From: Cavenderia fasciculata
Taxonomy: Eukaryota; Evosea; Eumycetozoa; Acytosteliales; Cavenderiaceae
Assembly (NCBI RefSeq): GCF_000203815.1
Contig: NW_004457639.1
Coordinates: 1,178,001-1,242,000, forward strand
Direction: 5' to 3'
Length of the DNA stretch: 64,000 bases
Part shown: positions 26,768 to 59,058 of the stretch, in pieces
Layout: each line of letters opens with the position of its first letter
Numbering within the stretch: position 1 is the first letter of the stretch
Made by a program: the position numbers and the translations under genes
The notes under the pieces: model-generated
What the model was told of the DNA's origin: nothing
Seen by the model: only the letters and a program-made list of their open reading frames with translations
Database searches by the model: none

Positions 26768-28774
26768 TTATTTACCATATGGATTTTCTTCAGAAAAACC
26801 ATTACGAGTGTAAGAAGCTGGTTGAGAACGATCACGAGAACCACCAGGTCTTTGAGCCTTGTCCTTTGATTCGTATTTGCTGAGAGCAGAGGTGGAGATG
26901 ATGTTGGTGAGTGGGATTTTGGGTGGGTTTTGGAAGCCAAAGGCAATCGAGACGTGGCCGAGTTGGAGACTGTTGACGTCAAAGATGTCCTTGAGCGAGT
27001 GAGAGGCGTACGAGAGAATGTAACTACGGTAGGCGTCACGGGCCGAGTTGTGGAGGTAAAAGTTGTGCGAGATGAGCTTCTCGAGCTGTTCTTGCACGTT
27101 GGATACCTTCTTTTGGGGGAACTCGTACTCGTTGAGGGGCACCTTGGCGAGCTTGAGGTACTTGAGGAAACCGAGTTCTTGTGGCAACAAAAACATGAGG
27201 GCACGTCCCTTTTTGCCGGTGCCTCTGGCGGTACGACCGACACGATGGATGTATTCCTTGGGATCATCAGGTGGGTCGTATTGGATGATCCAGTCAACCG
27301 AGGGGATATCTACGCCACGAGCAGCGACGTCGGTGCAGAGAAGGATTCCCTTTTGGGCATTGACAAACTCGTAAAAGGTGTTGGTACGCAACGTTTGCTT
27401 TTGTTTGCCGTGGAACGCCAAGACTGGGATATCGATGTAGTTGAGGAGTTCGGCGTGGAACTTGACAGAGTTACATGAAGAGAAGAAAACGATTACCTTT
27501 TTGTTGAGATTCTTTTTGAGGAATGTGTAGAGGAGCAGGAAACGCTTCTCGGATGGACAGACGACGTATCCTTGCTCCAAACCCTCGACGGTCGATACTT
27601 GACGGTCGTCGTCGACACCGACGTAGACTGGGTCGCTTCTAAACGACACACGGGCAATAGCGTCGACCTTGTTGCTTTGAGTGGCCGAAAAGAGCATGGT
27701 CTGACGCTCCTTGGGGAGGAGCTTGACAATCTGATGCATCTCCTCTTCGAAACCAACTTCGAGCATACGGTCAGCCTCATCAATGACAAGACACTTGAGG
27801 TTCTTGACAACGAATCCACGTGTGTTTTGCAAGTGGTCCAACAAACGACCGGGAGTGGCAACGAGCAAGTTGACACCCTTGACGAGACGCTCAGCCTCGG
27901 CCTTTTTGTCGGCACCGCCCATAATGATACCGTGTGTCTGTGAATGGTGAGCCATCAACTCGGCAGCGACACCGTAGATTTGCAAAGCCAACTCACGTGT
28001 TGGCGACATGATAATGACACCGGTTCCATTACGTGGATAAAAGTTGGACTTGACCAACACCTCGATGGCGGGGATAAGGAATGCCAATGTCTTGCCCGAA
28101 CCCGTACGAGCAGCACCCAACATATCACGTCCTTGGAGTAATGGTACAATCGACTTTGCTTGAATTGGTGTCATTGTCTTGAATCCCATCGTTGCAATTG
28201 CCAACTTTGTCTTTTCTTCAATTGGTAACTTTTCAAATTCAATATTACCTTCAATTCCTAATTCTACAAAAAGATATAGTATGAATAGTATTAGTATAAG
28301 TAGATATAAATCAATTGAGAGAGAAAGATATAGAGAGTGAGATTGAATAAACACACCTTCAGCAGTAACATTATCGGCATTATTATTATTTTCTTCTTCT
28401 TGTTCTTGTTCTTGTTCAACTTGTTCTTCTTCTTCATCATCATCTTGTTCTTGTTCTTGTTGTTGTTTTAATGATTTCTTTTCTTGTATTTGTTGAACTA
28501 TATTTTTCTTTTTTTGGTTTCTATCTTGTTCTTGTTCGAGTGATGGTACGACAGACTTGACTTGTTCCTTTTCTTGTGTTGATTTTGCAGATGCTAAACG
28601 TTCAATTTCAGATTGCTTATTGTTACTATTACTATTATTATTATTACCACTGGCAGCATTCTTTTGTTTCTTGACAACTTTCTTTGCTGTAGTAGCTACT
28701 ATATTTTCGACTTTTTGAGATACTGACGAGGAGGATGATTCCCCATCAATCTCTTTTCTCTTTTTCTGAACCAT
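26768..28774 (-). CDS. ddx18: DEAD-box ATP-dependent RNA helicase, DDX18/Has1 type (637 aa)
   Basis: Exon 1 (28774..28357) and exon 2 (28263..26768) are joined in phase 1. The 93-nt intron has no stop, but the GTGTGT donor and TTTTTGTAG acceptor and the fit to the family show that it is spliced. The N-terminus is Gln/Glu/Lys-rich and low in complexity. The helicase core carries the Q motif (TPIQAKSI), motif I ARTGSGKT, Ia [36 protein letters not shown] and [11 protein letters not shown]. The extension ([16 protein letters not shown], then [11 protein letters not shown]) is the DDX18/Has1 signature. The yeast orthologue acts in the nucleolus in 60S and 40S ribosome assembly. Confidence 0.95.
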
Positions 28775-29049: not shown

Positions 29050-29053
29050 ATCA

Positions 29054-29092
<39 letters not shown>

Positions 29093-29098
29093 TTGATG

Positions 29099-29129
<31 letters not shown>

Positions 29130-29593
29130 GTATGGTAGTTAGGGACAGTGGGAATGTCATTTATCCATTCATGCGCGAATTAGATGACGAGGCATTTGGC
29201 TACGTTACGTTTACTCCTCAGAGACTTTAGCTCTGACAGATGGCTCGGGTCTGGTGAGACTTTATCCATCATAACCCCTCTCGAGGCGGACCGACTATAT
29301 CTTAAGCTTGCGCCGACTGACATTTAGTCTGTGAACTGCATTCATACCATCTACAAACACGTAGTGGGTTAGAACTTGGCTGCGTGATTAACTCTATTCA
29401 TCAACTTTTTACTTATATCCTTTGCGAGGCCCTCAACTTGGTTTCCCAGTTGGTTAGTATTGATGACTTAACAAGTCGTTTCCGCAATTTGACAGTCTGG
29501 CCAACTCTTGTTGTGTAAGACACGTTAGCATATTAGAGCAATCCTGAAACCGATATATCAGGCCAATACACTTTTCTCTCCAAAGGGTATTAT

Positions 29594-29625
<32 letters not shown>

Positions 29626-29738
29626 TGCTAGGTTGAATCTCTTCACTTTGACATTCAGAGCACTGGGCAGGAATCACCCCTGGTCAACAGGCTTTCGCCT
29701 TTTCCAGGGGCTTTGTTTTAATTAAACAGTTAGATTAA
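29050..29738 (-). rRNA. Fragment of nuclear 28S (LSU) rRNA gene, degenerate, interrupted by a group I intron
   Basis: Read on the minus strand, the 144 nt at 29738..29595 match the conserved eukaryotic 28S segment with TTTAATTAAAACAAAG, CCCAGTGCTCTGAATGTCAA, GGGTAAACGGCGGGAGTAAC and TATGACTCTCT. The 159 nt at 29208..29050 resume with GTAGCCAAATGCCTCGTCAT, CGCATGAATGGAT, CAGCGAAACCACAGCCAAGG, GAACGGGCTTGG and AAGACCCTGTTGAGCTTGAC. The fragment ends abruptly on both sides in AT-rich DNA. Several usually invariant positions differ: TAACGTAGCC for TAAGGTAGCC, loss of about five bases after CATCTAATT, and AATAGCGG for AATCAGCGG. It is therefore a chromosomal rDNA scrap rather than a working gene, unless this lineage's rRNA differs. 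The sequence type is nuclear, not mitochondrial. Confidence 0.9.
29209..29594 (-). ncRNA. Group I (IC1) intron at LSU position L1925
   Basis: This 386-nt insertion lies between CTCTCT and TAACGTAGCC of the 28S fragment. P1 is explicit: the 5' exon CUCUCU pairs with the internal guide GGAGAG (about 18 nt into the intron), ending in the required U-G wobble at the splice site. The intron ends in G (omega-G). Core elements closely match the Tetrahymena intron: GUCAAAUUGCGG (P3/P4), a P5-region hairpin with a GAAA loop, GCAAAGGAUAU, CACGCAGCCAAGUUCUAA, GCAGUUCACAGACUAAAUGU (P7/P3) and AAGAUAUAGUCGG (P7 3' strand). It has no homing-endonuclease ORF. It may well retain self-splicing chemistry, although the flanking rRNA looks decayed. 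Confidence 0.92.
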
Positions 29739-30025: not shown

Positions 30026-33000
30026 ATGGGTAACAATCAAAGTACCAGTGGTGGAAATGATGTGGGAGAGGGAGGAAGATTGAATGAAGATACGTTCAGA
30101 GAGATTGGTAAACCAGTGGCATCTTTTTACGATCACAAAACTAATCACTCTATCGTTATAACTAGAACTGCATTCCTCACCTACAATGAAAAGACGAGAC
30201 AACATATATCTACTGTACCTTCCATCAGAAATATATCGGTTGTCATCTACCACAATGAATATGATATCATTGTAACTGGTGAAGATGATCTTTGTATTAG
30301 AGTTTATAGAGTATGCTATACATATACATATACATATTACAATTGTATATTAATATTCAATTATTCATTCATTCATTCTTTTTAAATGTAGGCAAGTACA
30401 GGTCAATTAATTAATACTTTACCTGTATCAGCTACTGCTCCCTCCTCTACTTCATCTGCAACACAAACACAAAAGAATGAAAAGTCATCACAACCACAAG
30501 CACATCGAGAAGTTATCAAATCATTATTATTATTGGATGAATTCCAAGATGAAGATGATTATGATGAATCATTGTTACTGTTGTCTGGTGGTAACGATGG
30601 AACGATTAGATTGTGGAATGTAGAGACGGGTGAGTTGGTGGCGGTGTATGTCGTGTCGAATAATCCGACTGGAGGGTCGTCCTATGACGACACACCGATT
30701 GCCGGCGTGTCATCTCTTGTTTTTGACCTTAGATCAAAGGTGATTGTGGCTGGTTGCTCAGATGGCATCATTCGAACATTCTCGTATCGGGATCGTATGA
30801 TGACCGGACAGTTTGAGGGCCATGGCAGAGGTGCTATCTTAAACGTGGTCATTACCAACAATGGACTACTCGTCTCATCGTCACTTGACCAAACTATTCG
30901 ATTATGGTCACTCGAAACGGGGACTGCTATTGCTGGCATCACTCATTTTGCACAGACTCTCAGTTATGATGCCTATAGAGATGTTTTGTTTGCTGGATCG
31001 AGTGAAATGGGTACTGTAACAGTCATCAAGATTGAACAGCGTGCCAGTACTACTGCTGGCGGACAAGATGGAAAGAGTGTATTTAAAAAGATTAATATGC
31101 TTGATTTTAATAGGTCGGCTGTCTTGCACCACCATTTCAACACGTTGGCAGACTCGATCATCGTCACTACACTCGAGAGTAATATATTGTTTGTGCCAAA
31201 TGTCACGGGTATCCCATTCGACCAAAAGGATTTAAAAGCAAAACGACTATATGGAAACTCTAACCACCACGACCGCGACAATAATAGCAAGTTCCTTATA
31301 TCCAACCACCAACAAATTAGTACTAGTACTCAATCAATGATGATGGCATCATCTCCACCACTGTCTTCATCATCAATGATACTGTCGGCACAGTCTGAAA
31401 AACAACTTAGAATTGAAGAAGAGTTGGACCGAGAGTTGGAACAACTCAGCAACTCATTGTCACAATTGGACTCGACTACGATTGAAAAGGGGTTGGAGGA
31501 TCTGAGATTCATCGAGATTGACGACAATTCAAAAGAGATTATAGACGAACATGACGAGACGTCCAAGAACCTCATCGACAGGATGTCTCAGCTTTCCAAA
31601 CTGTCTTTTGACCTGTTTGACGAAAAGGATGATATATCAAGATTGAGACGATCAAAGTTTAACGAAGAATTGACACGTTTAAAGCAGTTGGTTGTAGAGT
31701 TGGACAAAGAGTATAGTACAAGTCTGCACGAGTTGGTTGTGGATCAGGCGATCGGACAGACTGTACTACACCCTGAAAAGGCACGTGATACTAAAGAGTT
31801 GGATATAGCTAGACGTCGTCAAGAGATTGTCGAGAGACATCGTCGCGAGTTGGAAGAGTTTGACAAGTCGACTGAAACCGAGTTACAACGATTCGATCAA
31901 CGTCTCCCTAAACTTGTTAATCGTACCGTCCATTTGTTACTCTCCAACAGCGAGTCATTGCGTCGGTCAAAGGTTGATTTAGAGTTGGCTCTAAACACAC
32001 ATATTTCTAATTCATTCCCTTTGATTCGTCGTGACAATATTAATAGTAGTGTTGCCGAACACCAATACAAGTATCATGTAGGACCGTTAGTATCTGTACA
32101 TGCAAGTAATGTGTTTATAGGTATTGAAAACGGACCCTCTGCACCCCAGTTGGTTGCCATCAAGATGCTGCCACCGGGTGTCCCCATCCAACCACCTTCA
32201 TCTCATCCCAATCTCACTAATATCTGGACTGCCCGAACCATCAACAACCAGCAATCAACTAATGTCGTCATGGAGTATTGTTCAGGCGGTGATATTAAAC
32301 AGTTTGTCGAAGAGTTTGACAATCACACCGTCCCATTACCCCTCGTCCAAAGTATCGTCCATCAAATCCTACTATGTCTGTCACATCTCCATGACCGCCA
32401 ACTAGTCATTCGCGACCTGTCTCCAAGCCACGTTCTCATTGGGTCCGACCACCAAGTACGTCTCACTCATCTAGGTATCATGCGTGCACTCGGTGGGTAT
32501 GCCAGCGAAGTTGATGAAGATGGAAACTATTATATTGCACCAGAAATCCTTAGTCGTGCCATCAACACGTCGTCTGACATGTGGTCGTTGGGAGTCGTCC
32601 TCATCTTCCTCTTGCAAACACAAACTGAGCGTGAAACCACCCCACTCTTCCACGGACACGATGACAAGACACTGCTAGAATCGATGATCAAGGTCGTAGG
32701 AAGACCATTCTCCAAAGATATTGAACAAATGAGTGTACAGTGTAATATGGACGATCAAGGAAACGAGTTGTTGGCACATGCCAGTAGTCTCCCAGTTCCA
32801 TTCGAAGACACAATCGTCATTCTCAAAAAATATATATCTCGTGCCGACAAGACAACTCTAGATTTTATCATCCAACTTTTACAATTCTGTCCACACAATA
32901 GAATAACTGCTAAACAAGCCTTAAATCATTCGTTTTTTATTCAATCAAATAGTGGTAGTAATAATATTAATAATAATAATAATAATAGTGGTAGTGGTAG

Positions 33001-33496
33001 TAGTTATAATAATGACTATAACGAATACAACAATAGTTATAGTAGTACACCAAGTACTCCTTCGACACCAGTTGGTTCTACAAGATCACCAAAATTATCA
33101 AATGATGAAATATTACCAACTATAGATATTTCAACAAATCCATCTATCACTATTACAAATGAAGAAAAGGAAAAGGAAAAGGAAATGGAAAAGGAAATAG
33201 ATGATGATGAACTTGAAAATATTTTAAAAGAATATAGTGATAATGAAATAGTTGTCACCATTAAAGATGATGATGATGATGAAATAGAACAAGATCAAGA
33301 AATACAAGTAGAAGAAAAGAAAGTGGAAGAGGTGGAAAAAATAGAAGAAAAGGAGGAGGAAGAGGAAGAGGAAATTGTAAATGATAATCTTGTTGTTGAT
33401 CAAGAAGAAGTAGAAAAAGAAGAAGAAAAGACAAATGTTGAAGAAAGAGAAAAGGATGAAATTGAAGTTTCTATATCCTCTTTACCCTCCTCTTAA
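30026..33496 (+). CDS. WD40-repeat protein with coiled coil and C-terminal pseudokinase domain (1129 aa)
   Basis: Exons 30026..30310 and 30392..33496 are joined in phase 0 (GTATGC; AAATGTAG). The start MGNNQST suits N-myristoylation. WD40 blades occupy roughly residues 30-330 (LLLSGGNDGTIRLWNVETG; SSSLDQTIRLWSLETG). Glu/Leu/Arg-rich coiled coil covers about 370-620. A kinase-like domain follows (about 660-910): VAIK lysine near 686, MEYCSGGDIKQF hinge, catalytic loop IRDLSPSHVLI (Asp near 770 kept; His of HRD, the Lys and the Asn replaced), THLGIM in place of DFG, and an intact APE. Loss of DFG and the catalytic-loop Asn indicates a pseudokinase. The tail is Asn/Ser- then Glu/Lys-rich. It is a probable membrane-linked scaffold, which is an inference. 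Confidence 0.85.
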
Positions 33497-39587: not shown

Positions 39588-44541
<4,954 letters not shown>

Positions 44542-50283: not shown

Positions 50284-51581
50284 ATGTCAACATCTACAAC
50301 AACTGTGCCACATTCACCACCTCCACCGCAACCTCCTCCATCACCATCACCAACAACTAAAAAGCATAAGAAATTGACAAAAGCAGAGAAAAAGCAAAAC
50401 AAGAACATAAGAAAACAAATTAAGCTTGAGAAAAAGAAAAATAAGTATAACAAGAATAAGATCAAAAACAAGAACAAGTACAATAAGAAAAATAAGGATA
50501 ATAATAACAATGATAGTAGCGATAAAAAGAATAATAATATAGAGGATGATAATGAAGAAGAACAAGAAGAAGAAGATTTTGATCACAAGAAATATTATAA
50601 AAAAGCACTCAAAGTTACTAGACTAGCACCTGCTCAAATCACTAGATATTCACAAATATTAAAGAATGGACAAATCAAAGGATCGTGCACATATAAATCA
50701 TCAAGATGTGTGGTTTATCCTGCCAAGACTATTCTTGGTACACCACCTCATCACTTTGCTTTTATGCAAGAACATGGAAGAAAGGAGACCATGGAGATTG
50801 ACATTTCAAAGGGAATGACTATTTGGAGTATATGTTCGACCAAGAATTGTGTCAACCCTCGTCACTTGGTCAGAGAGGTGGAGACGATCAGTAGGACAAG
50901 GGCTGGATGCCACAATGTTTTTAGGAAAATATTCAAACGTCATGGAGCTGGAATCACCATAGAGGAAATGAGATCTTTGGATAATGTTTGTAAACATGAA
51001 CCACCTTGTATTCCTACTTTTTTAAAACACCCAAAATCTATCAAAATAGTAATAACTTTAAAGATGACAATTATGACAATGGATATAACTATAATAATAA
51101 CAACTGTAATAATAATAACTATAACAATAATAACTATAATAATAACTTTAAGAATAATAATAATAACAACAACAATAGAGACAAGTATTACAATGACGAA
51201 TACAGCTGTAGTTATAACGATTCTAATAATTATTATTCCTATGATGACAATGATTATGATGAGATGGATTATACTTACAGTCAATTCTATGAAGCCAGTT
51301 ACGTAGAGAAACGACAGGATAGAAATCACCCAATCACCAATAATAGTAATCATTTTAATAACAATAATAGGTATAATAATAATAATAACAATAGTAGTAA
51401 TAATAATAGCAATAATTTTAGCGGTCATAGTTTTAATAATAGAAAAATCATTAGCAACAATAACAATTGGACAGAGAACAAAAATACTTGGACGGAGAAC
51501 AAATATAGTAAAAATGGCGCATGCCAGTCTGGATCAACCATCAAATCAAAATGTTTTAGAGGACAACAAACAATCAATTAG
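50284..51581 (+). CDS. I-PpoI-like two-zinc His-Me-finger protein, copy A (frame slip at T run)
   Basis: The start ATG at 50284 gives a Pro-rich then Lys/Asn/Glu-rich head. The domain (about residues 110-245) keeps all eight zinc ligands of I-PpoI with its spacing: RCVVYP, C-x4-C-x4-H (CSTKNCVNPRH), Cys 15 after that His, and C-x-H-x3-C (CKHEPPC), followed by the family motif CIPTF. The I-PpoI catalytic His (two before the first Cys of C-x4-C) is Ser, and the metal-binding Asn (nine after the His) is Ser. Frame is lost at 51017-51022, a run of six T where seven would keep it. The next frame continues as an Asn/Tyr-rich tail to 51581. Unlike B-D, this copy lacks the usual C-terminal module. 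Confidence 0.75.
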
Positions 51582-51892
51582 CAACGCCAAGGAAAAGATC
51601 AGCAACAACAACAACAACAACAATCCTACAGGAGCATATAAACGATTAGTAACCCCAATGTTCCTAAACCAACAAATAAGGACAATACAACCCATCCTAT
51701 CACCAAAACACCAACACCAACAACATCAACATCAACAACTTCAACATCATCAATATCAACAACCTCAAAAGATCAAAACAAATCTACTATTGGTGATTCA
51801 AGACAAAATGATATTGGATTGTATAAAAAATATATGGATCCTGTAGAAAAGGATAAAACAAGTAAACCCAACAAGGATGTTCCCAAACCAAC

Positions 51893-51939
<47 letters not shown>

Positions 51940-53579
51940 TAAATAATAATACTTTCGCCAAAACAACATCAAAAGATCAACCATCAAATCAAAATGTTTT
52001 AGAGAACAAACATACAATTAGTAATTCCAAGGCAAAGATCAACAACAACAATCCTACAGGAGCAGATAAAGCTATTAGTAACCCCAATGTTCCTAAACCA
52101 ACAAATAATAATAATAATAGTAATAATAATAATAATAATCATAGAAATAATAATAATAATAATAATACTTTGACCAAAACAACATCAACATCAACAACAA
52201 CAACAACAAATGATCAAAACAAATCTACTATAGATATTATGGGTGCTCTTTCCAAGGAAAAGATCAACAACAATCCCACAGGAACAGATAAAGGAATTAG
52301 TAACCCCAATGTTCCCAAACCAACAAATAATAATAGTAATAATATTAATAATAATAATAATATTTTCAGCAAAACTACAACAACTGACCATTGATTATCC
52401 ACCAGGTACTGTTTCTCCAAAGAAACAAGCACCTCCTTGTCAATATTTTCCAAAGATAGTCCATTGGAATGCCACCATCTTCCCTTTCTCCCAAAACCAC
52501 TGTTTCCAAAGGTGGTCCCACATACCATATCACCCGTCCCCCCTCCACCTCCTCTACAAAATACAAACCCCCAGATTGTTCATCCAAAACCTTCTACTAT
52601 ACCCGAAGTTGAAATTGATGAAAGTAGAGAGCCCAAGAGAAAAAGGAAAATCAAGATTCCTAAAGTGAAGATGGAACCAAAGTCGTCTGTTCCAGATTTA
52701 GAAATAGAAGAACGTCCAAAAAAGATTGTCAAGATACCTTGTATCGATGTAGAGGTTCCAGATGCACCGCCAACATCCACTTCCACATCTATGCCCATTC
52801 CAAAGGTGAAAATAGAACCACCTGATGATGTTGATGATTTCAAGAAAATCCCAACCGTTAAAATAGAACCAAAAGACAAACATACAACTCCATCCAAACA
52901 ACCAAAACAACAATCATTTTTCGATAATCAACAACTACAACGACAAAAAGAAGAGGAAAGACAACTACAACAACAACATGAAGATCTAGAACTACAGAGA
53001 TACCAACAACTTCAACAACAAAAACAACAACAACTCCAGAAACAAAAAGAGTATTTGCTACAAAAAGAAGAAAAACAAAGAAACCAACAATTACAAAAAC
53101 AAAAAGAGTATCAACAACAACAAGAAGAGGAAAAAGAAAGAAACAAACAACTCCAAAAACAAAAAGAGTATCAACAACAACAAGAAGAAAAAGAAAGATT
53201 CGAACTACTCCAGAGACAAAAAGAGTACTTTCAACAAGAAAAATTTAAACTATATCAAATTATAAAAGAAAAACAACGAGAATATGAACAAAAATACCAA
53301 GATAATCAACAACCACAACAACCATTGGTAGATTATCAAGATGATCACAGTTGCGAGTATTGTCTTAGTAGACCAGATATCAACGAGATACCATACGACA
53401 TGCCACATGATCACACCACCAACCCATTTGAAAGATGTTTTTGTGTAGTCTGTGTAGACAAGAGAACTTATATTGAATTGTTTGGTTGTCATTATCATCC
53501 AGATAATGTTCGCAGTCGTTATACACCAACTACTCCAACTCCACCAAAAAGAAAAAGAGCTCCAGCAAAAAAGAAATGA
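51582..53579 (+). pseudogene. Asn/Gln-rich gene continuation with a three-fold repeat and Cys/His-rich C-terminus; frames broken
   Basis: Possibly the downstream part of copy A. A module (DQPSNQNVLE..., ISNAKEKI, NNPTGADK, ISNPNVPKPTN) occurs in full or part three times at about 51530-51690, 51970-52110 and 52240-52330. Frames change near 51510 (A run) and near 51645 (GCATATAAACGATT versus GCAGATAAAGCTATT). A TGA at 52392-52394 interrupts an otherwise open frame that goes on to 53579. The later part has KIPKVKMEP-type repeats (IPKVKIEP, IPTVKIEP), a long Gln/Lys/Glu helix with QKEYQQQQEE units, and a Cys/His-rich end (DHSCEYC, CFCVVCVDK, CHYHPDNV), then a basic KKRK-type tail. No family is recognised. 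An unseen intron could remove the TGA. Confidence 0.5.
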
Positions 53580-54021
53580 AACAAAAAAAAATAAATAAAT
53601 CATTTTGTTTTGAAGAAGTGATGAATGATCATCCAAACATATAAAATATAAATCACTTTAAAATTTAAATCATGATGATCAACAAATATTGGTATTGTGA
53701 TCGATCATATTTAATGGGATCTAGTTGCAAGACAACTCATTAGATAACAAGACAACTCATTCATCTGTTAAAAATTATCGATTACAAGAAGAAGAAGAAA
53801 GAAAGAAAGATGTTATTGGTTGGTTAAACTTTATTTTTTATATTCACAGTTTTATCAACTCACCCCAATCTCTAAACAACCATTTAATTTATTATTATAG
53901 TAATATAATAAAATGTGGTGTTAGCGCACAGAGAGAGAGAGCAAGAGAGAGAGGCGTTAATTAATTATGTAAATTGGTTTGGTTGCGCACAAAGAAATCA
54001 TTATTTTTACTTGTTAAGTAG
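53580..54021. promoter_or_regulatory. Upstream region of copy B with elements shared with copy C
   Basis: ATTGGTTGGTTAAACTTTAT at 53816-53835 has counterparts at 55419-55437 and 55739-55758. AAATTGGTTTGGTTGCGCAC plus AAAGAAATCATTATTT, just before the ATG, recurs before copy C as AAATTGGTGCACATAGCC plus AAAGAAATGGTCATCATTAT. The upstream DNA was therefore duplicated with the genes, or conserved as promoter. Confidence 0.5.
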
Positions 54022-55232
54022 ATGATTGTTGACTTTAATAGTCTACCATCATATACTAGAATTCCTATCTTTCGCAACCCTCAACCTCCTCCTCGTCCTC
54101 TTCATTTATTCCCTCTTGCTCCTAGTGTAACTGAAATGGGCGACGATGATGAAGAACCAACAAGCAGCAGTACTGCTCAGGTATGTTTTACACTTAATAA
54201 TACGATAACAGAGACAATAATAATACAATACAATGTACTCACTCTCTATTAATTATATAGGAATCCGATGATTCATCTGAAGGTGACACTACCCCAGTGA
54301 CCAAGAAAACTCGCAAATCAACCAAATCAAAAAAGAGTGATAGTGACAAAAGTGATAGTGACAATAGTGATAGTGAAAAGATTGATAATACAAATAGTGA
54401 TACTAATAGTGATCCTACTATTAGAAAAAAGATTACTCGCCCACGTATCAATCCTACTGCTCAAATTCCACCCACATTTGAACCCCTTGATGTGTCGGAT
54501 ATCAATGAGAGCCAATTCACTAAACTCAAAGGATTACTCAATGACAACAAAGTTTTGGGAGACTCTACATTCAACTCTTCAAGATGTGAGGTATATCCAG
54601 ACAATTCTTTTTACAAAACACCTTCTTCCATCAAACCTCAACACGTAGCATTCATGGCTCACCGTGGAAGATTGGAAACAGGATTGATTCCCAAAACCAA
54701 ATCGCCAGACAACATGTGCATCTCCAAATTATGTTGTACCGCTGGTTGCATCAACAAAGACCATATTCTCTCAGAAACACACAAGATCTCTAAATCTAGA
54801 GGTGAATGTCACACCACGATCAAGGATATATTAAAGAAACAACTCAAGACACAAGACAGAAAAATTTCAGCAACCATCAAGCTTTGTCCTCACGAGCCCA
54901 AATGTATTCCAACATTTACCAATGGTTATCAAAAGGATGAAAGTGAAGAGGAAGATGGTAATCAACAACAAACTGTCAAAAGAAAACGTATTCCCAAGGA
55001 AAAGGTAAAGTCAACAACAACAACAAACAAACAAGCTTTGAAAAAGACAAAGTATCCTCAAGATGAAGTAGAAGTGGTAAAGACAAGTTCAGGTCAGACC
55101 ATTATCAACGTTACAATGCACTCTCAAAATGTTTTTATTATGGCAGACAATGATAACTTTGGTGGGGTTATTAATCGTTTAGTCTCTCAAGCCAGACCAC
55201 CAACAAATGGACAATCTATTTCAAACAAATAA
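54022..55232 (+). CDS. I-PpoI-like two-zinc His-Me-finger protein, copy B (376 aa)
   Basis: Exons 54022..54180 and 54261..55232 are joined in phase 0 (GTATGT; AATTATATAG). After an acidic, Ser/Asp/Lys-rich head come zinc ligands Cys162 (SSRCEVYP), Cys211, Cys216 and His221 (C-x4-C-x4-H), Cys236, then Cys262, His264 and Cys268 (CPHEPKC). These match I-PpoI C41, C100, C105, H110, C125, C132, H134 and C138, with identical spacing for C100-C125 and C132-C138. Lys209 and Ser230 occupy the catalytic His98 and Asn119 positions, so nuclease activity is unlikely. A Lys-rich linker leads to a C-terminal module INVTMHSQNVFIMADNDNF, then GVINRLVSQ, shared with copies C and D. A DNA-binding, possibly regulatory, role is inferred. 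Confidence 0.85.
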
Positions 55233-55439
55233 TAATAATCTTTTACAACATCAATCTTTTTAAATTTAATCAAAATAATAAATGTTTCTAATCAAATATT
55301 TCCATTGAAGTATCATGACAAACTAAAAACGAATCTCTATTAATATACCTATTCTAGTACAGCAAAACAAGACAACATTTTGATAAAAATTAATGGTAGA
55401 TGGTACCACAATTGGTTAAACTTAATTTATTTTATTTTA

Positions 55440-55545
55440 TTTTATGTATGTCTGACAGTCCCGTTGGTGGAATACGTTTAGTCCATCAAGTTAGACCAAC
55501 AAATACCAAATGGTCTATCTATTTCCATTAATAAAACTTTATATA
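55440..55545 (+). pseudogene. Decayed 3' end of a fifth I-PpoI-like gene
   Basis: GGTGGAATACGTTTAGTCCA and AGACCAACAAATACCAAATG, then TCTATTTCC, parallel the last codons of copy B (GGTGGGGTTATTAATCGTTT, AGACCACCAACAAATGGACA, TCTATTTCAAAC). No zinc-domain coding sequence remains. It is preceded by the same TTGGTTAAACTTAATTTATT element found upstream of copies B and C. The rest of 55233-55906 is AT-rich spacer and copy C promoter. Confidence 0.6.
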
Positions 55546-55906
55546 GTCTTTATTCTTTTTTTTTTTTTTTTTTTTTGAATCTATTACATACAAAGAGATC
55601 TGTTTAAACATCACTAATAGCTATCACTCTTCATCACAACGATAGCAACCTCAACTATTTGTCGATATGATGATGAGGTGACAGAGGGAGACCAGACACA
55701 CTCGAACATCGATAAAATTATTGGATGAGATGAAGAAGATTGGTCATGGTTAAACTTTTTATTCACCTCCATCTTCTAATTTGACAAGCATTATCATAAA
55801 AGTGAGGAGTTAACAACATCAAGTTTGTATATAAATTGGTGCACATAGCCAAAGAAATGGTCATCATTATCATCATTATTTTATTCAAGTACAACTAGCT
55901 CAAGAG

Positions 55907-57020
55907 ATGTTCAGTCTACTTCCCTCATACATGAGGAATCTTCTCGATACCCAATCCCCTACCCTCCCTCTTACACCTGGAAGTGAGACAGCTATTAAGA
56001 ATCCTACAATCACTATTCAAAAGGTATGTTCTACACTTTAAAAATTAAAAATCATTGATAAGAGCAATCAATTCAATTTATTTACACTTAGTATATTATT
56101 AGGATATTGAGGATTCATCACAATCTTTAGATGACACTATTGACGATATCTCTCAAGATATTGACTCTACTGTAAATCCACCAACCACTGGACTCGTTGC
56201 AGATAAAAACCTTAACGTGACGAAGATCACCGAGGAACACTTCACCAAACTCAAAGAATTACTCAAGGTCAACCGACTATTTGGAAATCCAACACTTAAC
56301 TCTTCAAGATGCGAGGTATATCCACAAAAGTCAATGGGATACCCTGCAGTCAAACCACAACACTTGGTATTCATGACTCACCATGGAAGACCGCAAGCAA
56401 GAATGATATCAAATGATACAGCCCGTGATAATTTATGCATTTCCAGTATATGTGGTACCACCTCATGCATCAACAAAGACCATATTCTGGCAGAGACAAA
56501 CAAGAATCACAATTCCAGAAGAGCTTGTCACAGAAAAGTAAAGGTAATCTTGAAGGGAAAGAACCAAGACAAAATTTTGGAGGTTGTAAACAGTTGTCCT
56601 CACAACCCCAAATGTTTACCAACTTTTATAGATGTCGATGATAAAGAGGAGAAAGAGAACGAGGAACAGGAACTGGTGCAAGATACAGATGAGATCGAGG
56701 AAGATGAAATTGAAGATGAAGAGGAACTGGTGCAGGATGAAGATGAAGATGAAGATGATGAAGAAATTGAAGTTGACAATCAACAATCAATTAAAAGAAA
56801 AAAAGCCCAACCATCCAATCAACAGACAAGATTGAAAAAGGTAAAGCATTCTAAGTGTGAGGAAATGGAGGCTACCGATTTGGATGCTGATTCTTGCACA
56901 ACAATTAATGTGACAATGCATTCTCAAAATGTATTTGTTCTCTCTAACAAGGACCACTTTATTGGTATCATTGATCGTTTACTCGTCTCTCAAGTTCCAT
57001 CAAAATCAATTAAAATTTAA
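55907..57020 (+). CDS. I-PpoI-like two-zinc His-Me-finger protein, copy C (344 aa)
   Basis: Exons 55907..56023 and 56103..57020 are joined in phase 0 (GTATGT; ATATTATTAG). The domain begins VTKITEEHFTKLKELLKV, as in copies B and D. Zinc ligands: SSRCEVYP, CGTTSCINKDH (C-x4-C-x4-H), Cys 15 residues after that His (SRRAC), and CPHNPKC. The catalytic His position is Ser and the Asn position is His, although an Asn lies one residue before. A long Asp/Glu tract follows, then Lys-rich sequence and the C-terminal module INVTMHSQNVFVLSNKDHF, then GIIDRLLVSQ. The same gene structure and neighbours as copies B and D point to tandem duplication. Confidence 0.85.
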
Positions 57021-57447
57021 TAAATTTTAAATTAATTATTTTTTTTTTTGCTCAAGCAATCGATGATCATTTTATTTATTAGGTATCAAAACAAACTATA
57101 AAATCAATTCAATTGTATAGATAGAATAATATTATCGAGTATGAATAGGTGTGTCATTTATTAGAGGAGAGAACAAAAGTTTGTTTACCACCATAACGTC
57201 ATTCTTATCATGATTATTGGTCAACTCTCTCTCTTTTTTGGTATAAAGTTTTATCAAACACACTCCTCTTCGTCGATCTTTTAATTTAGCGAACAACAAT
57301 GAAAGTGTGGTCAATATAGTGAGTAAATGGTGGATATTGGTTTAATTGGAAAGAAAGAAGAAGAAATCATCATCATCATCGTCATCGTCATTGTTTTACT
57401 TGCACACTACTTTACATAGTTACATAGTTTATTAAAGTGATATAGAA
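57021..57447. other. Spacer upstream of copy D
   Basis: AT-rich, with a (CAT)n run near 57369-57390 before the ATG of copy D and a short ATATTGGTTTAATTGG similar to the element upstream of copies B and C. No other gene is seen. Confidence 0.45.
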
Positions 57448-59058
57448 ATGAGAAACATGTTTCTCCCTTCCTTTTTTAAATTTGGTCCAAGTGCTGGGGA
57501 CTCTTCTGCAGTAAGTATTGATATTATATATTATAATAACTTAATTACTGGTTTATGATCTAACCAATTAATTATAATTCATTAATATTAATATTCTTTT
57601 ATTCTTAATTATTATTGACTATAGAATGATCATGATGCCAAAATTAAAGTAGATAATGATGACAACAACTCATTTGACATGCAATCTCAATCATCTGAAT
57701 TTGCAACTCAAGAAGATGATGATGATAATGATACAATGAATCAAGCTACCCCAACCAAACCACAATCTGTATGTATACTACAGGTAGTTAAATATTACAC
57801 ATAAATGTTTACTTATCCATTCTTTTCGAAAGGAAACCATTGAACCTTCATTTCTATCTACCGGTAGCTCTACACTCCAAACAAATCGATCAAATGTTGG
57901 TACACATAGCAACGGTATCAAGAGAAACATTTGCACTCCTCCTCATACACCACCTACTACTCCATCGACCTATACCTCATTCACCACCTCCACCTCCTCT
58001 ACTGCCTCTACTGCACATAGCAACAGTATCAAGAGAAACATTCCTACTCCTCCTACTCCTCCTACTCCATCGACCTATACCTCACCACCACCTCCACCTC
58101 CTCTACGACCTCCACTACCCATATCAACGGTATCAAGAGAAACATTCCTACTCCTCCTACTCCTCCTCCTACTCCATCTACCTCTACATCCTCCACCAAC
58201 GCTGCCACTAGAAATCAAAGGACATTAGAAAAAGAGACAATTGGATTAAAGGGACCTACATCTAAAGCTAATGTTCATCTCAAAGTAACCAACATTACAG
58301 AGGAGCAATTGGGAGAGTTAATGCAATCGGTCGACTTGAATTCAGCTTTGGGAGACACTACGGAAAATGGACGTTGCATGGTATGTCACCATCGATCGAT
58401 TGGAGGTAAATTGGGATTAAATGTTCAACACTTGGCATTTATGAATCAAAAAGGAGTGGCTGAAACAAAAAAGATTCCCATCGTCAAATCGGCAAACAGT
58501 CTCTCAATCTCCACCATTTGTGCTACCAAGCAATGCATCAATCCACAACATCTTATCAGTGAAATCTCCATGAGTCACCGTACAAGAGTAAAGTGTCATG
58601 CCAAGATCAAGAGAATTTTGAAACTGTCTCCCAAGAAACTCCAAAGACAAAAGATTGTCAGTGTCATTGAAAAGTGTCCTCACAAACCTCAATGTCTTCC
58701 AACTTTACCATTTCACAAGGATAAAGTAGATCAAGAAAGTGACAGTGAAGAAGAAGAAGAAGAAGAAGAAAGTGACGATGAAGATGATGTTGAAAGTGAC
58801 AACGATGAAGAGGAAAGTGACAATGATGAAGAGGAAGGGGAAGAAGAAGAAGAAGATATGGAGAATCTAAAGTCGGTTAAAAGAAAAAGATCAAGAAACA
58901 ACCATCATGGCAAGAAAAAATCAAAGCGTGGAAAGAAAAGCATGATAGTGCATGTACAGAATATGTTTGTCCTCCCCGATCAAGACCATTTTGAAAATAT
59001 TATCAGTAAAGTCGTCAAAAAAGCATCAAAACAATCAACTCCAAGAAAGAGAAAATAA
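57448..59058 (+). CDS. I-PpoI-like two-zinc His-Me-finger protein, copy D (one frame slip in Pro/Thr repeat)
   Basis: Exons 57448..57510, 57625..57768 and 57833..59058 (donors GTAAGT and GTATGT; phases 0, 0). Exon 3 contains a three-fold repeat, HSNGIKRNI plus Pro/Thr-rich sequence. Within the second unit, near 58087, TCACCACCACC replaces TCATTCACCACC, one base short, so the frame must shift for the domain to be read. After that: VTNITEEQLGELMQSV, RCMVCH, CATKQCINPQH (C-x4-C-x4-H), Cys 15 after the His, CPHKPQC, an acidic Ser-Asp/Glu tract, and an end module with VHVQNMFVLPDQDHF. The catalytic His and Asn positions are Thr and His. The slip may be a repeat-related sequence error or a real mutation. 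Confidence 0.7.

What the first reader, a model, noticed from the sequence alone, without database searches (positions are those of the whole stretch)
29209..29594. Group I intron at the L1925/I-PpoI site in a chromosomal 28S fragment
A 386-nt IC1-type intron splits a 28S segment exactly where the Tetrahymena intron sits and I-PpoI cuts. The guide GGAGAG pairs with exon CUCUCU ending in U-G, and P3, P4, P7 and P5-region sequences are close to Tetrahymena. Compared with Tetrahymena, one C-G pair in P3 has become U-A (GACTGUC/GUCAGUC), keeping the helix, so structure was under selection. I know of no nuclear rRNA group I intron described in dictyostelids.
Basis: partly seen in the sequence, partly recalled or inferred. 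Interest (0 to 1): 0.92.

Follow-up and report, generated by a model that had tools for sequence, protein, structure and literature searches.

The report
Self-splicing intron stranded in chromosomal pseudo-rRNA
A self-splicing type of intron, of the same kind and at the same position as the famous Tetrahymena one, sits inside a broken piece of ribosomal RNA gene in an ordinary chromosome of what appears to be a social amoeba, a group for which I found no such intron described.

Summary
Rfam's Intron_gpI model hits 29272-29603 (minus strand, 90.1 bits, E 9.5e-22) inside a eukaryotic LSU rRNA hit (163.6 bits). It follows CUCUCU, the L1925 site, and has an intact guide (U.G at the cut), P3-P8, a P5abc-like domain and a terminal G: group IC1. 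The 28S piece is not a working gene: about 300 exon nt in intergenic DNA, 5 nt of a conserved hairpin lost, and a G-to-C change in TAAGG that weakens P10. The host fits Cavenderia fasciculata (TTAGGG telomeres, 31.0 Mb), an inference. No other copy of this 28S region and no second strong intron was found in the assembly. Best reading: an intron-bearing rDNA piece was captured by a chromosome and is decaying; the ribozyme core looks intact. Published abstracts call nuclear group I introns restricted to rDNA. Whether the species' working rDNA carries this intron, and whether it splices, are untested. Four I-PpoI-family genes without catalytic residues lie 21-29 kb away.

The parts
29208..29593 (-). 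Group IC1 intron, 386 nt; longest stop-free stretch in six frames 65 codons
   Evidence: RF00028 hit 29272-29603; boundaries from exon sequence and guide pairing
29594..29736 (-). 5' exon: LSU rRNA fragment ending in ACUAUGACUCUCU (L1925)
   Evidence: RF02543 alignment; 3 of 100 strongly conserved columns substituted; in one 7-bp stem 5 pairs are changed on both sides and all 7 still pair
29051..29207 (-). 3' exon: LSU rRNA fragment starting UAACGUAGCC, degenerate
   Evidence: RF02543 to 29099, further similarity to 29051 by eye against recalled 28S; 5 of 98 conserved columns substituted and 3 of 98 deleted, part of a 5-nt gap; the UAAGG to UAACG change lies outside that count
29576..29581 (-). 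Internal guide sequence GGAGAG (3' strand of P1)
   Evidence: 6 of 6 pairs with exon CUCUCU, last pair U.G
29490..29497 (-). P3 5' strand GACUGUCA (partner UGUCAGUC 29315-29322)
   Evidence: 7 of 7 pairs around one U.U, as in the Rfam model
29391..29476 (-). P5/P5abc-like domain: P5a 7 of 7, P5b with GAAA tetraloop, P5c 3 of 4, A-rich bulge
   Evidence: Hand-drawn helices; similarity to recalled Tetrahymena P5abc
29293..29329 (-). P7 (GACUA/UAGUC), P3 3' strand, short P8 with GCAA loop, J8/7: guanosine site region
   Evidence: P7 5 of 5 pairs; model alignment
29219..29286 (-). P9, P9.1 and P9.2 hairpins
   Evidence: 4 of 4, 9 of 9 and 5 of 5 pairs in helices chosen by eye
26768..28774 (-). Flanking gene: DEAD-box helicase with SPB4-like C-terminal extension
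   Evidence: ORF, Pfam
30026..33496 (+). Flanking gene: WD40 repeats plus protein kinase domain (start read by eye)
   Evidence: Pfam on ORF 30533-33496
50284..59058 (+). Cluster of four PF05551 (His-Cys box, I-PpoI family) ORFs without the catalytic residues; possible but unproven link to the intron

Best explanation
A group IC1 intron at LSU position L1925 was carried into a chromosome as part of a piece of rDNA of about 0.69 kb (about 300 nt of 28S plus the 386-nt intron), which landed between two genes and is now a decaying pseudogene. Shown: the intron, its site, its core helices and the damaged state of the exons. Inferred: the source was intron-bearing working rDNA, most simply the host's own extrachromosomal palindrome, now or in an ancestor, taken up during DNA repair. 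If transcribed, the RNA should still splice itself by the usual two transesterifications (guanosine at P7, cut after CUCUCU, ligation to UAACG), though with a weakened P10. It has no homing endonuclease gene of its own, so it is not mobile by that route.
For: RF00028 and RF02543 hits. P1 6 of 6 with U.G. By my recount 44 of 48 RF00028 pairs are standard. Similarity to the recalled Tetrahymena intron: 233 of 373 aligned positions identical, best local match 79.7 bits against a maximum of 25.6 in 50 shuffles. The segment before the guide (ACCCUUU) complements intact UAAGG better than the UAACG now present (sequences), so the intron was probably shaped on an intact exon. 3' exon: 5 of 98 conserved columns substituted, 3 of 98 deleted in a 5-nt gap. 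One match for the fragment in the assembly; one intron above cut-off. D. fasciculatum has rDNA palindromes (PMC4931340, passages).
Against: The working LSU of this species was not available, so some exon differences may be normal for it; only the hairpin deletion and the TAAGG change are hard to explain otherwise. No RNA data. 4 of 48 model pairs are non-standard, one P5c pair fails, and folding energy is ordinary. Origin from the host's own rDNA is not tested. In one search only 27 of 2534 first-look candidates were scored.
Confidence: 0.75

Rival explanations
1. The 28S fragment was in the chromosome first, and the intron arrived later by ectopic homing or by reverse splicing followed by reverse transcription.
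For: The core helices look undamaged while the 3' exon is damaged; a family of I-PpoI-like proteins exists in the genome.
Against: The guide strand complements intact UAAGG better than the present UAACG; the four I-PpoI-like domains lack the catalytic His and Asn. The comparison of damage is weak: helices were chosen by eye and the source rRNA is unknown.
Confidence: 0.1
2. The fragment came from the rDNA of another protist by horizontal transfer. (This overlaps with the best explanation; it differs only in the source.)
For: One 28S stem differs from the Rfam consensus at 5 of 7 pairs yet pairs fully, so the source was a functional, diverged LSU; L1925 introns are known in Physarum and Tetrahymena (PMC3679873, passages).
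Against: Not testable here: I found no dictyostelid or myxomycete LSU to compare; 0 of 13 public loci matching an L1925-intron pattern carried an intron or eukaryotic LSU.
Confidence: 0.12
3. Assembly artefact: palindrome rDNA reads wrongly joined into a chromosome contig.
For: No other copy of this 28S region was found in the 21 contigs, so the palindrome's reads were probably handled apart.
Against: The piece carries a hairpin deletion and a TAAGG change not expected of working rDNA; the window holds no N.
Confidence: 0.05

Closest known systems
Tetrahymena thermophila L1925 (Tth.L1925) group IC1 intron
   Same: Same insertion site, guide logic, P3-P8 core, P5abc-like domain, P9 hairpins
   Different: 386 against 413 nt; much shorter P8; different P2 region; sits in a chromosomal pseudogene (Tetrahymena letters recalled)
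Physarum polycephalum L1925 (I-PpoI) intron
   Same: Same site, in a slime mould
   Different: Physarum's carries the I-PpoI gene and is mobile in crosses (PMC3679873, passages); this one has no such gene. Its intron sequence was not compared
I-PpoI / His-Cys box endonucleases (PF05551)
   Same: Four nearby proteins match the family above its cut-off and keep zinc-ligand positions (four by tool alignment, four more by eye)
   Different: The His98 and Asn119 slots hold T/S/K/S and H/H/S/S; PDB sequence searches did not find I-PpoI
rRNA pseudogenes of filamentous ascomycetes (PMC5555474)
   Same: Degenerate rRNA gene copies in a nuclear genome; the methods mention introns in 18S and 28S being removed before alignment (passages)
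   Different: Fungal, analysed by the paper as rDNA paralogues with RIP-type mutations; the passages that I saw do not discuss introns in the pseudogenes

Membership tests
Group I intron | Covariance-model match above the family's gathering score | tested here: met
   90.1 bits against 50, model positions 1-253 of 253
Group I intron | U.G at the 5' splice site in P1, terminal G | tested here: met
   CUCUCU/GGAGAG, last pair U.G; intron ends in ...AAACG
Group I intron | P7 with G-binding pair; P3/P7 pseudoknot | tested here: met
   P7 5 of 5, P3 7 of 7 pairs, agreeing with the model alignment
Group I intron | Self-splicing activity | not testable with these tools
   Needs an in vitro transcript
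Subgroup IC1 | P5abc extension with GNRA-capped P5b and A-rich bulge | tested here: met
   P5a 7 of 7, P5b with GAAA loop, A-rich AAGUAAAAAG; P5c weak, 3 of 4; drawn by eye, aligned with recalled Tetrahymena
Subgroup IC1 | P13/P14 loop contacts | not tested
   No call
L1925 intron family | Insertion between ..GACUCUCU and UAAGGUAGCC of the LSU rRNA | tested here: met
   Exons GACUCUCU / UAACGUAGCC, one G to C change
Nuclear rDNA group I introns | Lies in a functional rRNA gene at an rDNA locus | tested here: not met
   Chromosomal fragment of about 300 exon nt with a 5-nt gap in a conserved hairpin
Mobile (HEG-bearing) L1925 introns | Homing endonuclease gene inside the intron | tested here: not met
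   Longest stop-free stretch in the intron is 65 codons

The most novel reading that the evidence does not exclude
The stranded L1925 intron and the cluster of I-PpoI-family proteins 21-29 kb away share one history: a homing intron with its endonuclease gene entered this chromosome, the endonuclease gene left the intron, multiplied, lost its catalytic residues and was taken over by the host as a nuclear zinc-binding protein family. The cluster holds all four above-cut-off PF05551 matches that the genome search returned, and the intron is the only above-cut-off RF00028 match; a random place would lie this close with a chance of about 0.0014 (computed after seeing the pair).
Probability: 0.08. 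Interest if true: 0.82.

Novelty: new member of a known kind. Interest (0 to 1): 0.52.

Why it matters
Published abstracts state that nuclear group I introns interrupt functional rRNA genes or are restricted to rDNA (PMC3679873, PMC8395846, PMC9223047; abstract starts). A structurally intact IC1 ribozyme in a broken 28S copy in an ordinary chromosome would be a fossil of intron presence in this lineage. It would show how such introns can leave the rDNA, and it gives a testable case of a stranded ribozyme. It would also extend the L1925 family, known from the myxomycete Physarum, to the dictyostelids. Fungal genomes also hold rRNA pseudogenes (PMC5555474, passages), so similar stranded introns may exist unnoticed there.

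Tried and rejected
Energy folding as proof: rejected, z -1.03. Comparators from public collections: a core-motif pattern found nothing in viral contigs; an L1925 junction pattern gave 3 viral and 10 genome loci, of which 0 of 13 held a group I intron or eukaryotic LSU. Retroposition marks: one search lists only AT-rich or weak repeats on the two sides (the longest, 30 nt at 77%, lies off both ends), none abutting both ends; an A-run on the fragment's strand lies some 130 bp beyond the 3' end. A second intron in the genome: the C21 match is 16.3 bits, E 1.5, taken as chance (27 of 2534 candidates scored). Subtelomeric position: rejected, about 0.7 Mb from the C18 telomere. rRNA on telomere-bearing contigs: no Rfam match in the first 10 kb of C1, C6 and C8 or in C6:10001-20000. 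AlphaFold model of the PF05551 domain: mean pLDDT 46, not used. PDB sequence searches with one of these proteins and with their profile did not find I-PpoI; a direct profile comparison gave 32 columns, probability 6.4, E 0.0057, so that kinship rests mainly on Pfam. A count of intron damage by simulated mutation was not used as a test, because the helices were drawn to pair. Papers checked for an earlier stranded intron: PMC11687029, PMC10085805 and PMC5555474 (passages); none of the passages seen describes one, but PMC5555474 removed introns before alignment without saying from which copies.

Full report
What is there. On the minus strand, Rfam's eukaryotic LSU model matches 29944-29099 (163.6 bits, E 3.7e-40; the outer part is poorly aligned), and within it Intron_gpI matches 29603-29272 over all 253 model positions (90.1 bits, gathering score 50, E 9.5e-22); the only other match in the window at its gathering score is a tRNA. 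A permissive scan added two sub-threshold matches, E 0.24 and 0.38, elsewhere. The good 28S similarity runs from 29736 down to 29099 in the model alignment, and by eye to 29051. The 5' exon ends ...ACUAUGACUCUCU at 29594 and the 3' exon starts UAACGUAGCC at 29207, so the intron is 29593-29208, 386 nt.

Intron anatomy. GGAGAG pairs with the exon's CUCUCU in 6 of 6 positions, with U.G at the cut. Of 48 model pairs in the printed part of the Rfam alignment I count 44 standard. In a structure that I drew by hand, 90 of 91 pairs are standard, but the helices were picked to pair, so this is a description, not a test. P3 (7 of 7), P4, P5, P6a, P7 (5 of 5), a short P8, P9, P9.1 and P9.2 can all be drawn. 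A P5abc-like side domain with a GAAA-capped P5b and an A-rich bulge points to subgroup IC1; P5c is weak (3 of 4). By eye on that alignment, P3 (C-G to U-A), P5a and P6a differ by changes on both sides. Minimum free energy does not set the intron apart (z -1.03, 13 of 100 shuffles as low). There is no room for an endonuclease gene: the longest stop-free stretch is 65 codons.

The 28S piece is a pseudogene fragment. About 300 exon nt lie between a DEAD-box helicase gene with an SPB4-like extension (minus strand, 26768-28774) and a WD40-kinase gene (plus strand). In the 5' exon 3 of 100 strongly conserved columns are substituted. In the 3' exon 5 of 98 are substituted and 3 of 98 deleted, the latter part of a 5-nt gap in a conserved hairpin. 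In addition TAAGG at the splice junction, the partner of P10, reads TAACG, while the intron still carries CCUU, which fits the intact exon. One 5'-exon stem (CCCCUGG/CCAGGGG) differs from the Rfam consensus at 5 of 7 pairs on both sides and still pairs fully, so the source was a working, diverged LSU. No repeat abuts both ends of the fragment.

Where it is. The window is C18:1178001-1242000 of a 30,995,898-base, 21-contig genome. TTAGGG arrays lie at the ends of C2 and C18, at the starts of C1 and C8, and 1.7 kb inside C6; C18 ends at 1,919,465, about 0.7 Mb from the intron. A paper passage gives TTAGGG for D. fasciculatum and TAAGGG for P. pallidum (PMC6759168, passages). The species name is an inference. 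D. fasciculatum has rDNA palindromes (PMC4931340, passages). A DNA search of the assembly with the 718-bp fragment found only itself. RF00028 found only this intron above cut-off, plus one match of E 1.5; 27 of 2534 first-look candidates were scored. Searches with the LSU and SSU families did not complete (13 calls), so rDNA pieces elsewhere are not excluded.

Mechanism. Best supported: capture of an intron-bearing rDNA piece into the chromosome, followed by decay (0.75 overall; the own-palindrome source is an inference and overlaps with the foreign-source rival). If transcribed, the RNA should splice after CUCUCU. Transcription and splicing are untested. Rivals are later arrival of the intron, foreign rDNA, and assembly fault.

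Literature. A review's abstract states that all known nuclear group I introns interrupt functional rRNA genes in rDNA loci (PMC3679873; abstract start, passages), and two research papers' abstracts say they are restricted to rDNA (PMC8395846 and PMC9223047, abstract starts; passages of the first). PMC3679873 and PMC8395846 have 0 occurrences of 'dictyostel' in the main text. Six library searches that paired group I intron, intron or rDNA terms with dictyostelid names listed no paper whose title or abstract start describes a nuclear group I intron in a dictyostelid (one search listed 15 of 124 papers). A search on pseudogenes and nuclear group I introns listed 25 of 62 papers, none on a case like this by title or abstract start. 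Fungal rRNA pseudogenes are in print; one such paper mentions removing introns in 18S and 28S before alignment (PMC5555474, passages), so a stranded intron may exist there unremarked. The genome paper of the species was not held.

A possible neighbour. A genome search with PF05551, the I-PpoI family, returned five matches: four above cut-off, all in one cluster at window 50749-58701, and one weak match on C2. In an ungapped 32-column alignment with I-PpoI, extended to the others by a shared block, the four proteins keep the positions of the zinc ligands C100, C105, H110 and C125, but have T/S/K/S and H/H/S/S in the slots of His98 and Asn119, the active-site residues named in a figure legend. 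Four more ligand positions (recalled: C41, C132, H134, C138) match by eye columns that are invariant in 4 of 4. They are therefore probably not nucleases. Three of the four share a C-terminal motif by eye. The closeness to an I-PpoI-site intron has a chance of about 0.0014 for one random place, computed after the fact. I keep it as a bold but unproven reading.

Noticed in passing
window 50284-59058 (+): Cluster of four PF05551 (His-Cys box, I-PpoI family) ORFs that keep zinc-ligand positions but lack the catalytic His/Asn; some have acidic stretches and three share a C-terminal motif; the only above-cut-off matches returned for the genome.
   Followed up: partly
window 39588-40247 (-), perhaps with ORFs up to about 41567: Fanzor/TnpB-like piece: a sub-threshold Cas12f1-like TNB match (24.2 against 26.3 bits), best PDB match a TnpB-like protein at E 0.14 (weak); two further 100% identical copies, on C3 and C14, among 33 matches point to a recently mobile element.
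   Followed up: partly
L033, about 1057-1656 (G000 C2:1196339 region): A separate small protein with a His-Cys-like motif QHICGSKDCIRPGHL that keeps a His at the His98-like slot by eye; weak PF05551 match.
   Followed up: no
window 26768-28774 (-): The gene next to the rDNA fragment encodes a DEAD-box helicase with an SPB4-like rRNA-helicase extension; probably coincidence.
   Followed up: no
G000 C6:1705-1897 (L025): A 20,409-base contig has a TTAGGG array 1.7 kb inside its end; no Rfam match in its first 20 kb.
   Followed up: partly
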